From: Marinitoga litoralis
Lineage (GTDB): Bacteria; Thermotogota; Thermotogae; Petrotogales; Petrotogaceae
Direction of reading: 5' to 3'
Assembly (NCBI RefSeq): GCF_016908145.1
Contig: NZ_JAFBDI010000017.1
Span: forward strand, 1 to 48,223
DNA length: 48,223 nucleotides
Below, piece after piece: positions 7,942-16,544 of the stretch. Position 1 is the stretch's first letter. The number at the start of each line of letters is the position of its first letter. A program made the position numbers and the translations under genes. The notes under the pieces were generated by a model, which had not been told where the DNA came from, searched no databases, and saw nothing but the letters and a program-made list of their open reading frames with translations.

Positions 7942-9165
7942 TTAAAAGTTGTTCATTATTTTTTCTATTTCTTTCTGAGCTTTATCTAAGGCTTCTTTTG
8001 GAGGTAAAAGACCTTTTAATGCCATAGTTATATATCTTCTTACTATTTCAGAAAATTTATTATATTCAATTAATGAAGGTCTATTTAATACATTTTCTAA
8101 TTCTATTAATTTTTTCTTATTATATTCTTTTTCTTTTTCATATTCTTTATGCATATTCTTATATATTGGAATTTCATTATCAAATTGATGAAAAAATTCA
8201 GATCTTGTTAATACCTTTAATGCTTGAATTGAGTCTTCTATATTTTTTGTATTTTTCAAAATAGCCAATCCCTGAAACCCACTAACCGAAACTGTTCTTT
8301 TTTTATCTTTTATTGATTCTGATACTGGTATCAACTCCAAACTACCTTTTTTCAATATTTTTGAATACCTAGGATCTTCCATATATCTCGATTGATATGT
8401 CCAATTAGTTGTAAATGCAGCATCTCCGTTAATAAATACATCTAAAATATCATCTTCTTTAAACTCTAAAGATAATGGGTTTATTAAACCTTCATCTAAT
8501 AATTTTTTCATAAACGATAATGCTTTAACCGCTTCTTTAGTGTTTATTTTAATTGTATTACCTTGATAATAATCACCACCAAAAGCACCTAATAACCATG
8601 TAAACTCACACATCAAAACTTCTTCATTTACCCAAGAATCAACAATAGGATATTCTAATATTCCTTTTTCCTTAATAATTTTTGCCTGATATACCATCTC
8701 TTCTAAGGTTTTAGGTGGATGATCAAATCCTGCTTTTCTTAAAATTTCATTATTTACATAAAAATGTTGTATATTAACTAAATAAGGCAATGCATATATT
8801 TTACCATTGTATTTAAATTGTTCTAATACATAATCTGGAATATTATCAAAATAATCATTTAAATCATCTAATGGCAATATCATATTATTACTAGCTAGTT
8901 CTGGTATCCAAATTAAGTCAACCAATGCAATATCATAAAATGGCTCTTTGGAATTTACAGAAACTGTAATATTTTCATACATATCTTCATAAAATTTGAA
9001 AGTAACAAAAATATTTTCAACATTCTGTGAATTTATATATTTTATTAAATCTTCTGGCTGATAACCAGCTTGGTACATATATAAGAAATTAACACCAAAC
9101 ATTAATGAATAAAATAGAATAAAGAATAGTAATAAGTATTTTTTTAATAAATGCTTTTTTATCAT
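7942..9165 (-). CDS. Family 1 extracellular solute-binding protein in a two-component operon
   Basis: 407 residues with an N-terminal hydrophobic signal/anchor (about 8-26) and a family 1 (maltose/glycerol-phosphate type) binding-protein fold. Typical landmarks include DIALVDLIWIPELASNNMILPLDDL, YALPYLVNIQHFYVNNEILRKAGFDHPPKTLEEM and GDAAFTTNW. It lacks adjacent permease genes. Instead its ATG directly abuts the stop codon of the NtrC-type regulator, with a GGTGGG ribosome-binding site inside that gene's end. A binding protein co-transcribed with a kinase and regulator suggests it presents a ligand to the kinase's extracellular domain, although it could also feed a transporter encoded elsewhere. 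Confidence 0.85.
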   Translation of the reverse strand: MIKKHLLKKYLLLFFILFYSLMFGVNFLYMYQAGYQPEDLIKYINSQNVENIFVTFKFYEDMYENITVSVNSKEPFYDIALVDLIWIPELASNNMILPLDDLNDYFDNIPDYVLEQFKYNGKIYALPYLVNIQHFYVNNEILRKAGFDHPPKTLEEMVYQAKIIKEKGILEYPIVDSWVNEEVLMCEFTWLLGAFGGDYYQGNTIKINTKEAVKALSFMKKLLDEGLINPLSLEFKEDDILDVFINGDAAFTTNWTYQSRYMEDPRYSKILKKGSLELIPVSESIKDKKRTVSVSGFQGLAILKNTKNIEDSIQALKVLTRSEFFHQFDNEIPIYKNMHKEYEKEKEYNKKKLIELENVLNRPSLIEYNKFSEIVRRYITMALKGLLPPKEALDKAQKEIEKIMNNF

Positions 9166-10518
9166 TTAAATCCCACCATTTTCATATTTTTTTAGCTTAT
9201 ATTGTAATGTTCTTAAACTTATTCCTAAAGCTTTTGCTGTTTTTGTTTTGTTTCCAGAATATTTTTCTAATGTTTTTAATATTAATTCCTTTTCCATTTC
9301 TTCTAATGTCATATTTGAAAAATTATCTGTTTCAATTGTTTTATCATTTTTCATGTTTAATAAAAATTCAATATCAGATTTTTTTATAGAATTTTTTGTA
9401 TCAAATATTATAAACAGTCTTTCAACAAAATTTCTTATTTCTCTTATATTCCCTGGCCAATCATATGAAATTAAAATGTCATATGCATCTTTTGAAAAAT
9501 TAATTTTTGGTTTATTATATTTTGCTGAATATCTCTTATTAAAAAATTCAATAAATATTGGTATATCCTCTTTTCTTTCCCTTATAGGAGGAATATTAAT
9601 ATTTATAACATTTAACCTATAAAATAAATCCATTCTAAAATTACCTTTTTTAACTTCTTCTTCCAAATTCCTATTAGTTGCAGCTATAACCCTTACATCA
9701 ACATTTATTTCTTTTGTTCCACCTACCCTTTCTATAGTTCCGCTTTCTAAAACTCTTAACAATTTACTTTGAATTTCCAATGGTAATTCTCCAACTTCAT
9801 CTAAAAAAATTGTACCTTTATCGGCCAATTCAAATTTACCAGGTTTTGCTTTATCTGCACCAGTAAATGCTCCTTTTTCATATCCAAATAATTCTGATTC
9901 AACCAAATCTTTTGGTATTGCTGCACAATTCACAATAATAAATGGATTATCCTTTCTTTTACTAAATCTTTGAATATATCTTGTAAATACTTCTTTACCT
10001 ACACCAGTTTCACCAGTAATTAATATATTAGCATCTGTTTCAATTACTTTATTGACTATATATATTATATTTTTCATAATTTCAGATTGACCTATAACAA
10101 AATCTTCTTTAATAGTCTCTTGCACTATATACTTTAATTTTTCATTTTCTTTTTCCAAATCTATTTCTTCAAATGCTTTTTCAATTAAAAACATTAACCT
10201 TTTTAAATCTATTGGCTTTTTAATAAAATCAAAAGCTCCGCTTTTCATGGAATAAACAGCATCTTGCACATCACCATATCCAGTCATAATGATTACTTTA
10301 AGATATGGATTTAATGCTATATATTCCTTAATCTTTTCAGTACCTTTACCATCAGGTAATATCATATCTAATAATACAATACTATAATCATTCAAATCCA
10401 AATTATTAACGCTATTTAAGTCATTACATACATCAACGTTATATCCTTTTTTTTCTAAAAATTGATTTAATATTTTTGCGCTATTTTTATCGTCTTCAAC
10501 TATTAAAATTTTTTCCAT
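9166..10518 (-). CDS. NtrC-family sigma-54-dependent response regulator
   Basis: The 450-residue protein has three domains. A receiver domain (1-120) has acidic pocket D9/D10, phospho-acceptor D51, T79 and K101. The AAA+ domain (about 138-370) has Walker A GETGVGKE (169-176), the sigma-54-contacting loop GAFTGA (216-221) and Walker B GTIFLDE (235-241). A Fis-type helix-turn-helix lies at about 405-446 (KTKTAKALGISLRTLQYKLKKY). All features needed to activate sigma-54 RNA polymerase are intact. The start codon overlaps the kinase stop by one base. Predicted to be phosphorylated by the adjacent kinase and to activate a sigma-54 promoter, perhaps that of the divergent sugar transporter. Confidence 0.95.
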   Translation of the reverse strand: MEKILIVEDDKNSAKILNQFLEKKGYNVDVCNDLNSVNNLDLNDYSIVLLDMILPDGKGTEKIKEYIALNPYLKVIIMTGYGDVQDAVYSMKSGAFDFIKKPIDLKRLMFLIEKAFEEIDLEKENEKLKYIVQETIKEDFVIGQSEIMKNIIYIVNKVIETDANILITGETGVGKEVFTRYIQRFSKRKDNPFIIVNCAAIPKDLVESELFGYEKGAFTGADKAKPGKFELADKGTIFLDEVGELPLEIQSKLLRVLESGTIERVGGTKEINVDVRVIAATNRNLEEEVKKGNFRMDLFYRLNVININIPPIRERKEDIPIFIEFFNKRYSAKYNKPKINFSKDAYDILISYDWPGNIREIRNFVERLFIIFDTKNSIKKSDIEFLLNMKNDKTIETDNFSNMTLEEMEKELILKTLEKYSGNKTKTAKALGISLRTLQYKLKKYENGGI

Positions 10519-12488
10519 TATATCTCTCCTTCTCTAAATTCCAAAATTACTTTTGTTCCACTATTAGAACTAAATATTTTTATATCTCCATTTAATTCTT
10601 TTACTATAGAATGAACAATAAATAATCCAATACCATTACCATATTTTTTGGTCGTAAATGGTTTATTAAATATGCTTTCTTTATATTCTTCGGGAATTCC
10701 ACGTCCATTATCTTCAATAATAATATTAATTATTTTATTATTTTTTGATACATCGATTCTAATTTTTCTATTATCTTCTTTATTTTCTAATTCCTCTATT
10801 GCGTTATTAATGATGTTATAAAAAAGTTGATTTAATCTTTGAGGATTTGCGTTTAAATATATATTTTCATTTGATTTGTTAAATTCTACATCTATTGAAT
10901 TTTCTAATAATTTATATTTTAAGAGATTCAATATTTGTGATATAACACTATTTATATTTACCTTCTTTTCATCTGATTCTATAATTGCTCTTGAAGACAA
11001 TTCGCCAACTATTGAATCTATAGTCTTTATTTGTTCAATAATTAAATCGCTAATTTCTTCAATTTTTTGATTTCCTTCAAATTCCATTTTCAAATATTGC
11101 AAATTAAGATACATTGAATTTAAAGGATTTCTTATTTCATGTGCAGCAATACGACCAAACTTTTCTTTTTCTACTAATTTTTCATTTAATGAGTATAAGT
11201 CATTCATTTCTTTTTCTAAAGATATATCTCTTATTAATACTAATAATGAATTTTCTAAATAATTTCTACTAACTTCTATCAATTTTTGTTCATCATTAAT
11301 CTTTAAAGAATAAATTTTACTTTTTGAATCTTTAAGTTCTTTTTCACCAATTTCTTTCAATACCTCTTTACCAAAATCATTTTCTACTTTTATACTTCCA
11401 TCTAAATCAAAAAATATTATTCCTTCATATAAATTATTTACTAAGTATTTCAAAGTATTTTTTTCATTTTCAAGTGTTTCAATATTTTTATCTATTTCTT
11501 TACGCATATTACGCAAATTTTCTGATAATACATTTATAGAATCAATCAAATCCTTATACCTATTATTCTCTTTATTTTCAACGTCAATATTAACATCGAA
11601 ATTCCCTTTAGCTATTTCTTTTATGGATTTAATTGACAATTCTAAAGTTTCTATATTTTTCCCAAAATAAAATAAAGCAAAATAAATTAAGAAAGGAGAA
11701 ATAAATATCCATATAAACAATGAAATGTTTAAATTTGACGATATATTTTCAAAAAATACATCTTTTATCTTATTCTGAATTGAACTTAATTGAGAAATAT
11801 CAAATGAAATAATAAAAACTATATTATCTGATAATTTTTCAACTTTTGATGGATACTTATAATCATTTGATATTACATAATTATCTTCAATATTAAAATC
11901 AACATAATAATCATTTCTTTGGTAAATCTTATGTTTTTTTCCAATTATAGAAATTAATGATATTGAAGATAAATTTAGAGAATCTAAGAAATATCTATCA
12001 ATTTTCTTTGAAGCAAATACTTGAACATTTTCCTTTTTTGAACCAGTTACCATATATATTCCATTTTCATTCTCAAAATACCCATTTTTTATATCTTCTA
12101 TAACAGGAAAATCTCCTGTTTTAATTTTTATTTCATTTTCTACAATTATTATTACTCCATCTATAGACGATGAATTCAGCAATTCTTCTAAATACGTTTT
12201 AACGGTATTAATTAGTCCATATTTTGCATAATCTATTATTCTTTGATTATCTAAAATATTTATTGAAAAGTTTTTTAAATAATTATTATATTCAAAAAAA
12301 TTGTTCAAAGCAGTAGGATATATCTTATTAACCACTTCAAATCCAAAATCGTCAATTGTAGTTTCTGTATAGCTAGATAATTCCTTAAATATGTATTTGG
12401 TAATATATGTTTCATTAAAAATAATTAACATCGTCGGAAGAAGAACAAATATTAATATAATGAAAATAAATCTTCTTTTTAATGTCAT
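10518..12488 (-). CDS. Membrane sensor histidine kinase
   Basis: About 656 residues from the ATG at 12488, chosen because GGAGG (12498-12494) sits 5 bases upstream; the frame runs open to 12563 but without a ribosome-binding site. Transmembrane helices at about 5-25 and 253-275 enclose a roughly 225-residue extracytoplasmic sensor region of no recognised family. Then come a HAMP-like linker, a coiled coil, a PAS-like segment (about 345-425), the H-box AAHEIRNPLN with phospho-acceptor H450, and an HATPase domain with N-box NIINNAIEEL and G-boxes DNGRGIP and GNGIGLF. It heads the kinase-regulator-binding protein operon. Ligand unknown; sugar sensing is inferred from the neighbours. Confidence 0.92.
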   Translation of the reverse strand: MTLKRRFIFIILIFVLLPTMLIIFNETYITKYIFKELSSYTETTIDDFGFEVVNKIYPTALNNFFEYNNYLKNFSINILDNQRIIDYAKYGLINTVKTYLEELLNSSSIDGVIIIVENEIKIKTGDFPVIEDIKNGYFENENGIYMVTGSKKENVQVFASKKIDRYFLDSLNLSSISLISIIGKKHKIYQRNDYYVDFNIEDNYVISNDYKYPSKVEKLSDNIVFIISFDISQLSSIQNKIKDVFFENISSNLNISLFIWIFISPFLIYFALFYFGKNIETLELSIKSIKEIAKGNFDVNIDVENKENNRYKDLIDSINVLSENLRNMRKEIDKNIETLENEKNTLKYLVNNLYEGIIFFDLDGSIKVENDFGKEVLKEIGEKELKDSKSKIYSLKINDEQKLIEVSRNYLENSLLVLIRDISLEKEMNDLYSLNEKLVEKEKFGRIAAHEIRNPLNSMYLNLQYLKMEFEGNQKIEEISDLIIEQIKTIDSIVGELSSRAIIESDEKKVNINSVISQILNLLKYKLLENSIDVEFNKSNENIYLNANPQRLNQLFYNIINNAIEELENKEDNRKIRIDVSKNNKIINIIIEDNGRGIPEEYKESIFNKPFTTKKYGNGIGLFIVHSIVKELNGDIKIFSSNSGTKVILEFREGEI

Positions 12489-12503
12489 GATTACCTCCAA
12501 TTT

Positions 12504-12520
12504 TTGCATACCATATGCAA
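12504..12520. promoter_or_regulatory. Inverted repeat TTGCATA-N3-TATGCAA (regulator site candidate)
   Basis: A perfect 7-base inverted repeat spaced by three bases (17 bases overall) lies just upstream of the kinase ribosome-binding site. The form TTGCA-N7-TGCAA resembles the enhancer sites of NtrC-class activators in size and symmetry. It lies about 160 bases upstream of the sigma-54-like element before the sugar-transport operon and also inside the kinase gene leader, so it could serve remote activation, autoregulation, or both. Confidence 0.5.
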
Positions 12521-12523
12521 TTT

Positions 12524-12563
12524 TTGCATAGTAATTATATAATTTTTTTATTTTAATATGCAA
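12524..12563. promoter_or_regulatory. Second, wider-spaced TTGCATA / TATGCAA pair
   Basis: A further TTGCATA (12524-12530) and TATGCAA (12557-12563) lie next to the tight repeat, giving four half-sites in 60 bases. The right half-site overlaps the -35 of the kinase promoter and the left one its likely start of transcription, which would suit autoregulation. Confidence 0.4.
12534..12563 (-). promoter_or_regulatory. Promoter of the histidine kinase operon
   Basis: On the minus strand TTGCAT (12563-12558) is followed after 18 bases by TATAAT (12539-12534). Transcription should begin near 12527, giving a leader of about 40 bases that contains the tight inverted repeat at 12504-12520. Confidence 0.6.
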
Positions 12564-12661
12564 TTTATTCGTAGTTGTTTAAGTCTATATTTCATTTAAT
12601 TAAATACAATGAAAGCAATAAATCTTCCTTTTACTTAATTTTAAGAATTTTTTTATAAAAC

Positions 12662-12676
12662 TGGCACGCTGTTGCT
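12662..12676 (+). promoter_or_regulatory. Sigma-54-like element upstream of the sugar ABC operon
   Basis: TGGCACG-CTG-TTGCT at 12662-12676 matches both conserved blocks of the -24/-12 promoter (TGGCACG and TTGC). However, the GG and GC doublets are separated by 9 bases instead of the nearly invariant 10. It stands out in a stretch that is otherwise A/T. The ATG is at 12720, leaving room for a short leader. An alternative sigma-70 reading exists (TAATAT at 12676-12681 with TTATAA at 12653-12658), so the class of promoter is undecided. Confidence 0.4.
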
Positions 12677-12719
12677 AATATATAGAGTGGAGAAACTTAT
12701 ATAATTTGGAGGTGGAGTT

Positions 12720-13781
12720 ATGAAAAAGGTTTTATTGGCATTATTAGTTATTTTTACTATTACTATTTACGCAGTTGACGTAGGTATTGTTCTTCCTACA
12801 AAGGATGAACCAAGATGGGTACAAGACGAAACAAGATTTAGAGATGCATTAAAAGACACAAATGTATCTGTAGAAGTTTTATTCAGTCAAGGTAATCCTG
12901 CAAAAGAAAGACAAAACGTTGAAGCATTACTTTCAAAAGGTATTAAAGTTTTAATTATATGTCCTCATGATGCTGTTGCAGCAGCTGGTACTGTTGATTT
13001 AGCTAAAAAAGCTGGCGTTACAGTTATTTCATATGATAGATTAGTAACTAATACTGAATCAGTAGATTATTATGTAACTTTTGATAGTGTAGAAGTTGGT
13101 AGAGCACAAGGTCAATTCTTAGTTGATAATGCAACAGGAAAAAATAATCCATTATACTTATATGCTGGCGCATTATCAGATAATAATGCATTTTTATTCT
13201 TCCAAGGTGCTTGGGAAGTATTACAACCAAAAATTGCTGATGGTACATTCAGAATTGTTAACTCTTCAGAAGCTGTTAAATTACAAAACAAAAAAGAATT
13301 AACAAGAGAAGAAATGGCTAGAATAATTAACCAAATTACAACAGATTGGTCATTTACAGTAGCTAGAAGAAAAGCAGAAGATAACTTAACAAGAGCAAAG
13401 AAAACAGATAAAGGTACAGTATTTATTTTAGCTCCAAATGACGGTACTGCTAGAGCTATAGCAGATGCTTTCAGACAAGACAGAGATGTAAAAATGTATT
13501 ATGTAACAGGACAAGATGCTGAAAAAGCTTCAATTCAATACATAATAGATGGAAAACAATCAATGACAGTATTTAAAGACGTAAGATTATTAGTTAAAGA
13601 TGCTATCAGCTTAGCACAATTCGTATTAAAAGGCGTAAAATTAATTACTCCTCAATCATATGACAATGGTGCAAAAATGGTTCCTGCAATTCAATCAAAC
13701 ATCGCTGTTGTTACAAAGGACAACGTAAAGAAAGTTTTAATTGATTCAGGATATTATAAAGAATCAGATTTTAGATGGTAA
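12720..13781 (+). CDS. Periplasmic sugar-binding protein of xylose/ChvE type
   Basis: 353 residues. A signal peptide (about 1-18) precedes a periplasmic-binding-protein (LacI-like) fold with landmarks such as VEALLSKGIKVLIICPHDA, VISYDRLV and ILAPNDGTARAIADAF. It resembles XylF and ChvE, and the glucose/xylose-binding proteins of Thermotoga. It should deliver a monosaccharide such as xylose or glucose to the permease encoded downstream. The start has GGAGGTGG. A hairpin follows its stop before the ATPase gene. Codon use is enriched for a few preferred codons, as expected of an abundant protein. Confidence 0.9.
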   Translation: MKKVLLALLVIFTITIYAVDVGIVLPTKDEPRWVQDETRFRDALKDTNVSVEVLFSQGNPAKERQNVEALLSKGIKVLIICPHDAVAAAGTVDLAKKAGVTVISYDRLVTNTESVDYYVTFDSVEVGRAQGQFLVDNATGKNNPLYLYAGALSDNNAFLFFQGAWEVLQPKIADGTFRIVNSSEAVKLQNKKELTREEMARIINQITTDWSFTVARRKAEDNLTRAKKTDKGTVFILAPNDGTARAIADAFRQDRDVKMYYVTGQDAEKASIQYIIDGKQSMTVFKDVRLLVKDAISLAQFVLKGVKLITPQSYDNGAKMVPAIQSNIAVVTKDNVKKVLIDSGYYKESDFRW

Positions 13782-13798
13782 TTTAAAATGTAACTAAA

Positions 13799-13825
13799 GG
13801 GGTAGTGGGAACCGCTACCCTTTTT
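13799..13825 (+). terminator. Intra-operon hairpin (partial terminator or mRNA stabiliser)
   Basis: GGGTAGTGG (13800-13808), loop GAA, CCGCTACCC (13812-13820), then T5. It lies between the binding-protein gene and the ATPase gene of one transport operon. Such hairpins usually lower downstream expression so that the binding protein is made in excess. Confidence 0.75.
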
Positions 13826-13844
13826 CAAATAAGGGGTGATCTTT

Positions 13845-15362
13845 TTGAGCGAATATATTCTTGAAATGAAAAATATTACGAAAGAATTTCCTGGTGTAAA
13901 GGCTTTGGATAACGTAAATTTTAAAGTAAAAAAAGGCGAGATTCACTGTCTTATTGGTGAAAATGGTTCTGGAAAATCTACATTGATGAAGGTACTTAGT
14001 GGATATCATAAATATGGGACATATGATGGTCAAATAATATTTGAAGGTAAAGAACAAAGGTTTAATACTATATATGATAGTGAAAAGGTTGGTATAGTTA
14101 CAATCTACCAAGAATTAGCATTAATACCAGAATTAACCGTGTATGAGAATATCTTTTTAGGACATGAAATCAAAAACAGAGGAATGATAGATTGGAACGA
14201 AACTATTACTGAATCAAAAAAGGTACTTAAAAAATTAGGGTATGAAAATTTAGATACTTCAAAAAAAGTTAAGGATTTTGGTGTTGGGATTCAACAAATT
14301 ATCGAAATTGCAAAGGCTATTAGTAAGAATGTAAAATTATTAATTTTAGATGAGCCAACATCTGCTTTAAATGAAGCTGATAGTGAAAACTTATTGCGTA
14401 TAGTAAAAGACTTAAAAAATCATGGCATTACTTCAATTTTAATATCTCATAAACTTAATGAGGTATTAGAAGTAGCTGACACCATCACTGTATTAAGGGA
14501 TGGTCTAACTATAACAACAATTGAGAATAAGAATATATCGGAAAATGATATCATTAAACATATGGTAGGTAGGGAAATTAATGATATTTATCCAAAAAGA
14601 AATCATGAAATTGGAGAAAAAATATTTGAAATAAAAGATTGGAAAGCCTACGATAAGAAGAATGAAAGATTTGTAGTTAAATCAGCTAATTTCCATGTAA
14701 AAAAAGGAGAAATAGTTGGAATTGCTGGACTTATTGGTGCAGGAAGAACAGAACTTGCACATAGTATTTTTGGTAATCCTGATGATTATAATGTAAGTGG
14801 TGAATTATATTTCGAAGGAGAAAAGAGAGTATTTAAAACGCCTTCAGATGCTATAAAAGCTGGAATTGCTTATGTTTCTGAAGATAGAAAAGGTAATGGA
14901 TTAATATTAGACTTTGATATTAAAACTAATATCACTATTGCAAATTTAAAAGAAATATCTAAAGGTATATTTGTTAATGAAAATGAAGAAGTAATTATTT
15001 CAGAAGAATATAGAAATTCATTAAAAATAAAATCTCATAGCATAGAACAAAAAGTATTAAATCTTAGTGGTGGTAATCAACAAAAAGTATCTCTTGCAAA
15101 ATGGTTATTTGTTAAACCAAAATTATTAATTTTGGATGAACCTACAAGAGGTATAGACGTTGGAGCAAAACATGAAATTTATACTATTATGAACAAATTG
15201 GTTGAAGAAGGTATGAGTATTATTATGATTTCTTCTGAATTACCTGAAGTTTTAGGAATGAGTGACAGAATATATGTTATGTCTGGTGGAAAAATCACTG
15301 GAGAATTAAGTGGCGAAGAAGCAACACAAGAAAAAATTATGGCAATGGCTGTAGATTATTAG
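13845..15362 (+). CDS. Sugar ABC transporter ATPase with two nucleotide-binding domains (XylG/MglA type)
   Basis: About 505 residues. The first ABC domain has Walker A GENGSGKST and Walker B LLILDEPTSAL, with a degenerate signature FGVGIQQ. The second has the degenerate Walker A GLIGAGRTE typical of this family, signature LSGGNQQK and Walker B LLILDEPTRG. This fused-domain ATPase is the hallmark of ribose/xylose/galactose importers. I place the start at TTG 13845 because AAGGGGTGAT just upstream is the ribosome-binding site; the in-frame GTG at 13836 lies inside that site. It is 12 bases upstream of the permease gene. Confidence 0.93.
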   Translation: MSEYILEMKNITKEFPGVKALDNVNFKVKKGEIHCLIGENGSGKSTLMKVLSGYHKYGTYDGQIIFEGKEQRFNTIYDSEKVGIVTIYQELALIPELTVYENIFLGHEIKNRGMIDWNETITESKKVLKKLGYENLDTSKKVKDFGVGIQQIIEIAKAISKNVKLLILDEPTSALNEADSENLLRIVKDLKNHGITSILISHKLNEVLEVADTITVLRDGLTITTIENKNISENDIIKHMVGREINDIYPKRNHEIGEKIFEIKDWKAYDKKNERFVVKSANFHVKKGEIVGIAGLIGAGRTELAHSIFGNPDDYNVSGELYFEGEKRVFKTPSDAIKAGIAYVSEDRKGNGLILDFDIKTNITIANLKEISKGIFVNENEEVIISEEYRNSLKIKSHSIEQKVLNLSGGNQQKVSLAKWLFVKPKLLILDEPTRGIDVGAKHEIYTIMNKLVEEGMSIIMISSELPEVLGMSDRIYVMSGGKITGELSGEEATQEKIMAMAVDY

Positions 15363-15374
15363 GGAGGCTAGAGT

Positions 15375-16544
15375 ATGTTAAATGAATTAATTACCCTACT
15401 TAAAAAGAATATAAGAGAATATGGTATGTATATTGCTCTTGTAATTATTATGTTAATATTCTCATTTTTAACAGATGGACTTTTTCTTTCATCAAGAAAC
15501 ATTAGTAATTTATTCAACCAAATGGGTTATATTGCTGTATTAGCTGTTGGTATGACATTAGTTATTGTTATTAGACATATTGACCTTTCTGTTGGTTTTG
15601 GAGCTGGTTTTTTAGGTGCTATTGCTGCATTATTAATGATGCAATATAATATGCCGACTTTACCTACAGTTATATTAGTATTAATTTTAGGAATGATTTT
15701 CGGTTTAATTATTGGTTTCTTAGTTTCATTCATTGGCATTCCTTCATTTGTGGCCACTTTGGCTGGTATGATGATTTTTAGAGGTGCATTATTAGTTTCA
15801 ACACAAGATACTGGTACAATTATTGTAATGAACGATACATTTAATAACATTGGAAATGGATATATTCCTGATATATTTAATAATGAAAATATTCATTTAA
15901 CTACATTATTAATTGGATTAATAATTATATTATTATATGTTTATTTTGAAATCAAAAAAAGAAATAATAAAATAAAATATAATTTTGAAGTATTATCAAT
16001 CCCTGTTTTCACTTTAAAATTATTATTAATTTCATCAATAATTGGATACATTTTCTGGATTTTAGCAAATTATAATGGTTTATCATGGACATTTGTTATT
16101 GTTTTAATAGTTACTTTTATATATCATATTTTAACTACAAAAACTGCTTTAGGTCGTCATATATATGCTGTTGGTGGTAATCCAGAAGCTGCTAAATTAA
16201 GCGGTATTAGTTTAAATAAAATTACTTTATTTGTTTTTGGATCTATGGGATTATTAACTGCACTATCTGGTATTTTATATACTTCAAGATTCCAATCTGC
16301 TACACCTACAGCTGGTACATTGTTTGAGCTTGATGCTATTGCTGCTGCATATGTTGGTGGTGTTTCTGCAGCTGGTGGTGTTGGTAAGGTTACAAATTCT
16401 ATTGTCGGTGCATTAGTTATGGCTTCTCTTATAAACGGTATGAACTTAATTGGTGTAGGTATTTCATATCAATACATTATTAGAGGTGCTGTTTTAGTTG
16501 CTGCTGTTATATTTGATATTAAAACTAGAAGTAAAGCTTCTTAA
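15375..16544 (+). CDS. Sugar ABC transporter permease (XylH/GguB type)
   Basis: 389 residues, very hydrophobic, with about ten transmembrane segments and the family motif MTLVIVIRHIDLSVGFGAG; a later GGVSAAGGVGKV loop also fits. It belongs to the branched-chain/ribose type permease family and forms the membrane channel for the operon's sugar importer. It follows the ATPase gene after 12 bases with a GGGAGGC ribosome-binding site. The gene ends before a strong hairpin at 16563-16586, which closes the operon. Confidence 0.92.
   Translation: MLNELITLLKKNIREYGMYIALVIIMLIFSFLTDGLFLSSRNISNLFNQMGYIAVLAVGMTLVIVIRHIDLSVGFGAGFLGAIAALLMMQYNMPTLPTVILVLILGMIFGLIIGFLVSFIGIPSFVATLAGMMIFRGALLVSTQDTGTIIVMNDTFNNIGNGYIPDIFNNENIHLTTLLIGLIIILLYVYFEIKKRNNKIKYNFEVLSIPVFTLKLLLISSIIGYIFWILANYNGLSWTFVIVLIVTFIYHILTTKTALGRHIYAVGGNPEAAKLSGISLNKITLFVFGSMGLLTALSGILYTSRFQSATPTAGTLFELDAIAAAYVGGVSAAGGVGKVTNSIVGALVMASLINGMNLIGVGISYQYIIRGAVLVAAVIFDIKTRSKAS

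What the first reader, a model, noticed from the sequence alone, without database searches (positions are those of the whole stretch)
12504..12563. Four TTGCATA half-sites between a bacterial enhancer-binding protein operon and a divergent sugar transporter
TTGCATA-N3-TATGCAA plus a wider-spaced pair lie in 60 bases. The 17-base site has the size and dyad symmetry of NtrC-class enhancers. It overlaps the kinase promoter and lies about 160 bases from a sigma-54-like element, the typical geometry for looping activation and autoregulation.
Basis: partly seen in the sequence, partly recalled or inferred. Interest (0 to 1): 0.6.

Follow-up and report, generated by a model that had tools for sequence, protein, structure and literature searches.

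The report
Paired sigma-54 enhancers controlling sugar transporter
The repeated TTGCATA/TATGCAA letters are almost certainly the landing sites of a signal-activated gene activator that switches on a sugar importer in a heat-loving marine bacterium (Marinitoga) and probably limits its own production; this is a well-built, conserved example of a known kind of switch rather than a new kind.

Summary
The four half-sites are real, clustered beyond chance (0 of 20,000 shuffles) and conserved in seven Marinitoga-group genomes. They lie between a histidine kinase / NtrC-type regulator / binding-protein operon and a divergent ChvE/XylF-type sugar ABC transporter with a consensus sigma-54 promoter (TGGCACGCTGTTGCT, 12662). 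rpoN is present. The regulator's site is more likely TATGCAA-TTT-TTGCATA (12514-12530), with a second copy 43 bp away (12557-12573). That copy is complete in four relatives, one with matched changes on both arms. The only other sigma-54 promoter found in these genomes (fabF) has the same layout with different letters: two AGTATAA-WWW-TTATACT dyads, 41-43 bp apart. The genome encodes just two complete sigma-54 activators, with different recognition helices, so each promoter probably has its own. The site pair was found nowhere else, so this regulator appears to serve one divergent promoter region. The second dyad overlaps the kinase promoter's presumed -35, which predicts autorepression rather than autoactivation. 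No binding or expression data exist. New member of a known kind; the two-promoter sigma-54 regulon and the binding-protein/kinase/activator trio are the interesting parts.

The parts
12504..12510 (+).
   Evidence: Exact; conserved in 6 of 7 orthologous regions, lost in G003
12514..12530 (.). Dyad D1, TATGCAA-TTT-TTGCATA: proposed promoter-distal enhancer (UAS) of the NtrC-type regulator
   Evidence: Core TGCAAWTTTTGCA in 7 of 7 orthologues; same geometry as fabF enhancers
12557..12573 (.). Dyad D2, TATGCAA-TTT-ATTCGTA: proposed second enhancer; right half degenerate in this genome, complete in G002-G005
   Evidence: Centre 43 bp from D1 (42 in the six relatives); TGCGCAA-TTT-TTGCGCA in G002
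12534..12539 (-). Presumed -10 hexamer (TATAAT) of the kinase operon promoter
   Evidence: Invariant ATTATA on the + strand in 7 of 7
12558..12563 (-). Presumed -35 hexamer (TTGCAT) of the kinase operon promoter, inside D2
   Evidence: 17-18 bp from the -10 in 7 of 7; weak, 3 of 6 to consensus and not flagged by the consensus scan
12662..12676 (+). Sigma-54 promoter (-24/-12), TGGCACGCTGTTGCT
   Evidence: One of three TGGCAY-N4-TTGCW matches in the genome; TGGCAC-N4-TTGCT in 7 of 7 orthologues
10518..12488 (-). Membrane histidine kinase (ATG at 12488)
   Evidence: HisKA + HATPase_c; orthologues 69-87% identical in six relatives
9166..10518 (-). NtrC-class response regulator / enhancer-binding protein
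   Evidence: Receiver + Sigma54_activat + Fis-type HTH; GAFTGA and Walker A intact
7942..9165 (-). Extracellular binding protein (SBP_bac_1), proposed signal-sensing partner of the kinase
   Evidence: Pfam; maltose/trehalose-binding relatives in PDB; no permease beside it; follows kinase and regulator in G006 and G007, precedes them in G048
12720..13781 (+). Monosaccharide-binding protein of ChvE/XylF type
13836..15362 (+). Sugar ABC transporter ATPase (GguA/XylG type)
15375..16544 (+). Sugar ABC transporter permease (GguB type)

Best explanation
The repeats are a tandem pair of 17-bp enhancer sites (D1 12514-12530, D2 12557-12573, plus flanking half-site 12504-12510) for the NtrC-class response regulator encoded at 9166-10518. 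Proposed steps: an extracellular sugar or oligosaccharide binds the SBP (7942-9165) and/or the kinase (10518-12488); the kinase phosphorylates the regulator; regulator dimers bind D1 and D2, about four DNA turns apart, oligomerise and loop to RNA polymerase-sigma-54 at 12662-12676 to switch on the ChvE/XylF-type importer (12720-16544). Bound regulator also covers the sigma-70-type promoter of its own operon, so it should repress itself. Shown: sequence features, conservation, rpoN, intact activator motifs, paralogous layout. Inferred: binding, phosphorylation, looping, the direction of autoregulation, and the signal.
For: rpoN present. Regulator has receiver, GAFTGA-bearing AAA+ and HTH. Sigma-54 promoter and dyad core kept in 7 of 7 orthologous regions. 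D1-D2 spacing 42-43 bp in all seven, with matched changes on both arms in G002. Same-genus G001 lacks the kinase and the transporter and shows no such region. The only other sigma-54 promoter, fabF, has a like-built pair (AGTATAA-WWW-TTATACT, 41-43 bp apart in G000, G002-G006), and the genome has one other complete activator, with a different recognition helix. The other seven TGCAAWWWTTGCA 13-mers in the genome lie inside open reading frames.
Against: No binding or expression data. In this genome the right half of D2 is degenerate (TTTATTCGTA), also in G006 and G007. A lone TGCAAWWWTTGCA is not specific: about 8 per genome, also 8 in G001. Conservation of the left half of D2 may reflect the -35. 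The distant relative G048 keeps the trio but shows no site on its 9.8-kb contig, whose operon promoter may lie off the contig.
Confidence: 0.82

Rival explanations
1. Same regulator, but the operative dyad is the reader's TTGCATA-N3-TATGCAA (12504-12520), with 12524 and 12557 as accessory half-sites.
For: Perfect 7+7 dyad in G000, G002, G004, G005, G006 and 6 of 7 pairs in G007; 7-3-7 layout like the NtrC consensus TGCACCAnnnTGGTGCA (PMC8743547).
Against: Half-site A is damaged in G003 and this register does not recur at the second copy; D2 where complete has the TGCAA-WWW-TTGCA register; fabF enhancers share inner AA-WWW-TT, not this layout.
Confidence: 0.12
2. Both registers are used: overlapping half-sites A-B-C let dimers bind either A+B (nearer the kinase start) or B+C, shifting between repression of the kinase operon and activation of the transporter.
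For: A, B and C overlap and A is kept in 6 of 7 with fixed spacing.
Against: No direct evidence; fabF enhancers, which lack an equivalent third half-site, presumably work without it.
Confidence: 0.12
3. The palindromes are operators of a different sugar-responsive regulator (LacI or ROK type), not of the adjacent enhancer-binding protein.
For: Thermotoga xylose genes use ROK-type XylR and other local repressors (PMC3750489); short palindromes suit such proteins.
Against: No such gene adjoins; the sites lie upstream of a sigma-54 promoter and share spacing and inner letters with the second sigma-54 promoter, which a LacI/ROK operator would not explain.
Confidence: 0.06
4. The repeat acts as an RNA hairpin in the kinase mRNA leader.
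For: The leader can form a 7-bp hairpin.
Against: Fold not better than chance (z -1.57, 12 of 200 shuffles as good); one pair lost in G003; a short hairpin would be weak at the high growth temperature of Marinitoga (own knowledge); D2 lies upstream of the presumed start.
Confidence: 0.03

Closest known systems
NtrC enhancers at Escherichia coli glnALG (glnAp1/glnAp2)
   Same: 17-bp 7-3-7 dyads in tandem upstream of a sigma-54 promoter; one regulator activates the sigma-54 promoter and represses sigma-70 promoters of its own operon (PMC3870243; consensus PMC8743547).
   Different: Different letters, divergent genes, a sugar importer as target, no nitrogen genes; autorepression here is only inferred.
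LuxO enhancers of Vibrio qrr promoters (TTGCAWWWTGCAA)
   Same: TGCA-containing dyads around W3, two per sigma-54 promoter (PMC10162802).
PgtC-PgtB-PgtA / PgtP of Salmonella
   Same: A separate sensing protein, kinase and PgtA-type regulator control one transporter (PMC11077982); the kinase and regulator here score against the PgtB and PgtA models, well below cut-off.
   Different: Phosphoglycerate transporter, not a sugar ABC importer; low similarity.
AatJ-AauS-AauR of Pseudomonas
   Same: Binding protein, sensor kinase and sigma-54 activator controlling an ABC importer (PMC7386598, PMC7962211).
   Different: AatJ is the importer's own binding protein; here the SBP is of another family from the importer's own.
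XylFII-LytS and CuaD-CuaS-CuaR three-component systems of clostridia
   Same: A second, dedicated sugar-binding protein signals through the kinase to control a sugar ABC importer (PMC10384115).
   Different: Here the regulator is a sigma-54 enhancer-binding protein (the clostridial regulators are AraC-type from own knowledge).

Membership tests
Sigma-54 promoter | TGGCAC-N4/5-TTGC at -24/-12 | tested here: met
   12662-12676, in 7 of 7 orthologues
Sigma-54 promoter | Sigma-54 encoded in the genome | tested here: met
   Sigma54_DBD hit in a 364-aa ORF, E 4.9e-19
Sigma-54 promoter | Transcription requires rpoN | not testable with these tools
   No expression data
NtrC-class enhancer-binding protein | Receiver domain, AAA+ with GAFTGA and Walker A, Fis-type HTH | tested here: met
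NtrC orthologue (nitrogen regulation) | Score above the NCBIfam NtrC cut-off | tested here: not met
   398.2 bits against 558.6 for TIGR01818: same class, not NtrC itself
Enhancer (UAS) of an enhancer-binding protein | Dyad sites about 100-200 bp upstream of a sigma-54 promoter, usually paired | tested here: met
   Centres 141 and 98 bp from the -24 GG; conserved pair
Enhancer (UAS) of an enhancer-binding protein | Bound by the regulator | not testable with these tools
   Needs footprinting or EMSA
Three-component (SBP-kinase-regulator) signalling system | SBP gene linked to kinase and regulator across lineages | tested here: met
   G000, G006, G007, and the distant G048 with a different gene order
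Three-component (SBP-kinase-regulator) signalling system | SBP binds the kinase's periplasmic domain | not testable with these tools
   No interaction data
ChvE-GguAB multiple-monosaccharide importer | Scores above the NCBIfam equivalog cut-offs | tested here: not met
   Best-scoring models for all three genes but below cut-off: 257.8/460, 735.3/810, 416.6/450; substrate not established

The most novel reading that the evidence does not exclude
Marinitoga keeps sigma-54 for only two promoters, each with its own activator and its own pair of dyads on a common layout (a natural orthogonal pair), and at the sugar promoter three overlapping half-sites give two alternative dimer registers that set activation of the importer against repression of the regulator's own operon.
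Probability: 0.1. Interest if true: 0.6.

Novelty: new member of a known kind. Interest (0 to 1): 0.42.

Why it matters
Sigma-54 was reported in only some Thermotogae (PMC3162934), the 2025 survey of sigma-54 regulons does not mention the phylum (PMC12316311), and I found no paper describing its targets there. Here a whole sigma-54 regulon can nearly be read off: two activators, two promoters, two like-built enhancer pairs that differ in their outer letters. This allows activator specificity to be tied to a recognition helix (ISLRTLQYKLKKY against ITKMTLFSKLKKW). It also adds a sugar importer under a sigma-54 activator with what looks like a dedicated extracellular sensor protein, whereas sugar genes described in Thermotoga are under local repressors such as ROK-type XylR (PMC3750489).

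Tried and rejected
Scan for TATGCAATTTTTGCATA with 2 mismatches and for TGCAAWWWTTGCA: scattered single hits, including in G001 which lacks the system, so a single dyad is not diagnostic; the seven other 13-mers in this genome lie within ORFs. Relaxed sigma-54 scan: extra hits lie within reading frames. RNA hairpin in the kinase leader: not better than shuffles. C14 and C24 activator-like genes as further sigma-54 activators: rejected, GAFTDA without HTH and loop missing. Looking for the same enhancers in the distant G048: none on its contig. ChvE relatives in other phyla were not used further: the neighbouring regulators there were not examined. An upstream sigma-70 consensus scan did not flag the kinase promoter, so its -35 rests on position and conservation only.

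Full report
What is there. The intergenic region 12489-12719 separates two divergent operons. Leftward (-): a membrane histidine kinase (10518-12488, true start ATG at 12488 behind GGAGG rather than the TTG at 12563 listed mechanically), an NtrC-class response regulator (9166-10518) and an extracellular binding protein of family SBP_bac_1 (7942-9165), with genes touching or overlapping. Rightward (+): a ChvE/XylF-type sugar-binding protein, an ATPase and a permease (12720-16544), whose best NCBIfam models are ChvE, GguA and GguB although each scores below the curated cut-off. The genome belongs to the same genus as Marinitoga lauensis: the same-genus genome G002 has contigs of the same lengths and matches as the M. 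lauensis records.

Observation. The four half-sites are exact. Clustering of four in 60 bp was not seen in 20,000 shuffles of the intergenic region. The sigma-54 element TGGCACGCTGTTGCT (12662-12676) is one of only three TGGCAY-N4-TTGCW matches in 2.29 Mb, and one of the other two lies inside a reading frame. rpoN is present as a short 364-aa form.

Conservation. The kinase was found in six of seven sampled relatives of its genus and nearest genus, and not in 95 other genomes of the class except one distant case. In all seven genomes with the operon the intergenic region keeps, in order from the kinase start: half-sites A, B, C; a minus-strand TATAAT; a second B'(C') dyad; a long AT-rich stretch; the sigma-54 promoter. 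Core D1 (TGCAAWTTTTGCA) is kept in 7 of 7. The second dyad lies 42 bp away in six genomes and 43 in this one. It is complete in four relatives and only half kept in this genome, G006 and G007. Same-genus G001 has no kinase and no ChvE-type protein by the searches used, and no matching site near such a region.

Register. Three facts favour B+C. First, the second copy has the B+C register where complete (TGTGCAA-TTT-TTGCATA; ACTGCAA-TTT-TTGCATG; TGCGCAA-TTT-TTGCGCA), and in G002 both arms changed together. Second, half-site A is damaged in G003 while B+C stays. Third, the fabF sigma-54 promoter carries two AGTATAA-WWW-TTATACT dyads with the same inner AA-WWW-TT and the same 41-43 bp spacing in G000 and G002-G006 (the second dyad of G000 has a worn right arm). 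G001 and G007 have less clear fabF dyads, so the fabF comparison rests on six genomes. Caution: TGCA is itself palindromic, so sequence alone cannot settle the register.

Who binds. Sigma-54 activators in this genome: PF00158 finds several AAA+ proteins, but only C17 (this regulator) and C6 have GAFTGA and a Fis-type HTH; C14 has GAFTDA and no HTH and C24 lacks the loop. The two complete activators have different recognition helices, each conserved within its group: ISLRTLQYKLKKY and ITKMTLFSKLKKW. Two activators, two sigma-54 promoters and two enhancer types make the assignment of D1/D2 to the adjacent regulator the simplest reading; the assignment of the fabF enhancers to C6 is by elimination.

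Number of targets. TGCAAWWWTTGCA occurs eight times in this genome; the other seven lie in reading frames. Nowhere else in the genomes scanned do two such 13-mers lie within 100 bp of one another apart from this region in G003, G004 and G005.

Kinase promoter. The minus-strand TATAAT (12539-12534) is invariant in seven genomes; 17-18 bp upstream sits TTGC(A/G)N, the left arm of D2. The -35 matches consensus at only three positions and a consensus scan did not flag it, so the promoter is inferred from conservation. If it is right, regulator on D2 covers the -35 and on D1 the start region, which predicts autorepression as for NtrC at glnAp1 (PMC3870243). Which comes first, the -35 or the enhancer, cannot be told for the left arm of D2.

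Signal. The SBP has no permease beside it in the window, resembles maltose/trehalose-binding proteins, follows kinase and regulator in G006 and G007 and precedes them in the distant G048. This conserved linkage suggests a sensor role, as in PgtC, AatJ, XylFII and CuaD systems. Ligand and contact with the kinase are unknown.

Verdict. A conserved, well-formed enhancer pair of a dedicated NtrC-class regulator for a sugar importer. The class of mechanism is known; the site sequence, the phylum and the near-minimal regulon are new as far as the held literature shows.

Noticed in passing
window 12613-12622: A block AAATCTT/AAAATCT is kept in all seven orthologous intergenic regions between the enhancers and the sigma-54 promoter; it may be a further protein site or a bending element.
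   Followed up: no
L104 1400-1515; L180, L181, L186, L224, L231 (fabF promoters): The fabF gene of Marinitoga has a sigma-54 promoter with its own enhancer pair; in several genomes a further palindrome (TAGAACATATGTTCTA or similar) sits directly upstream of the -24 element, a likely second regulator's site.
   Followed up: partly
L199 (G000 C24): A PAS-AAA+-HTH protein of sigma-54-activator type without the GAFTGA loop; similar hits persist in sister genera where sigma-54 itself was not clearly found, which suggests a sigma-54-independent role.
   Followed up: partly
L018, L020-L025 (Marinitoga lauensis, G002): Three copies of the ChvE/kinase locus, some with stops in the kinase and ChvE reading frames, suggesting recent duplication and decay or assembly artefact.
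   Followed up: no
same-family genomes G008-G020: Sigma-54 (PF04552) is strong in the Marinitoga group but weak or absent in most other sampled genera of the family, pointing to loss of sigma-54 there.
   Followed up: partly
L194 (G048 C18:1757-6418): A distant Thermotogota genome has the same SBP, kinase and regulator as neighbours in another order (SBP first), with an identical recognition-helix core, but no matching enhancer on the 9.8-kb contig.
   Followed up: yes
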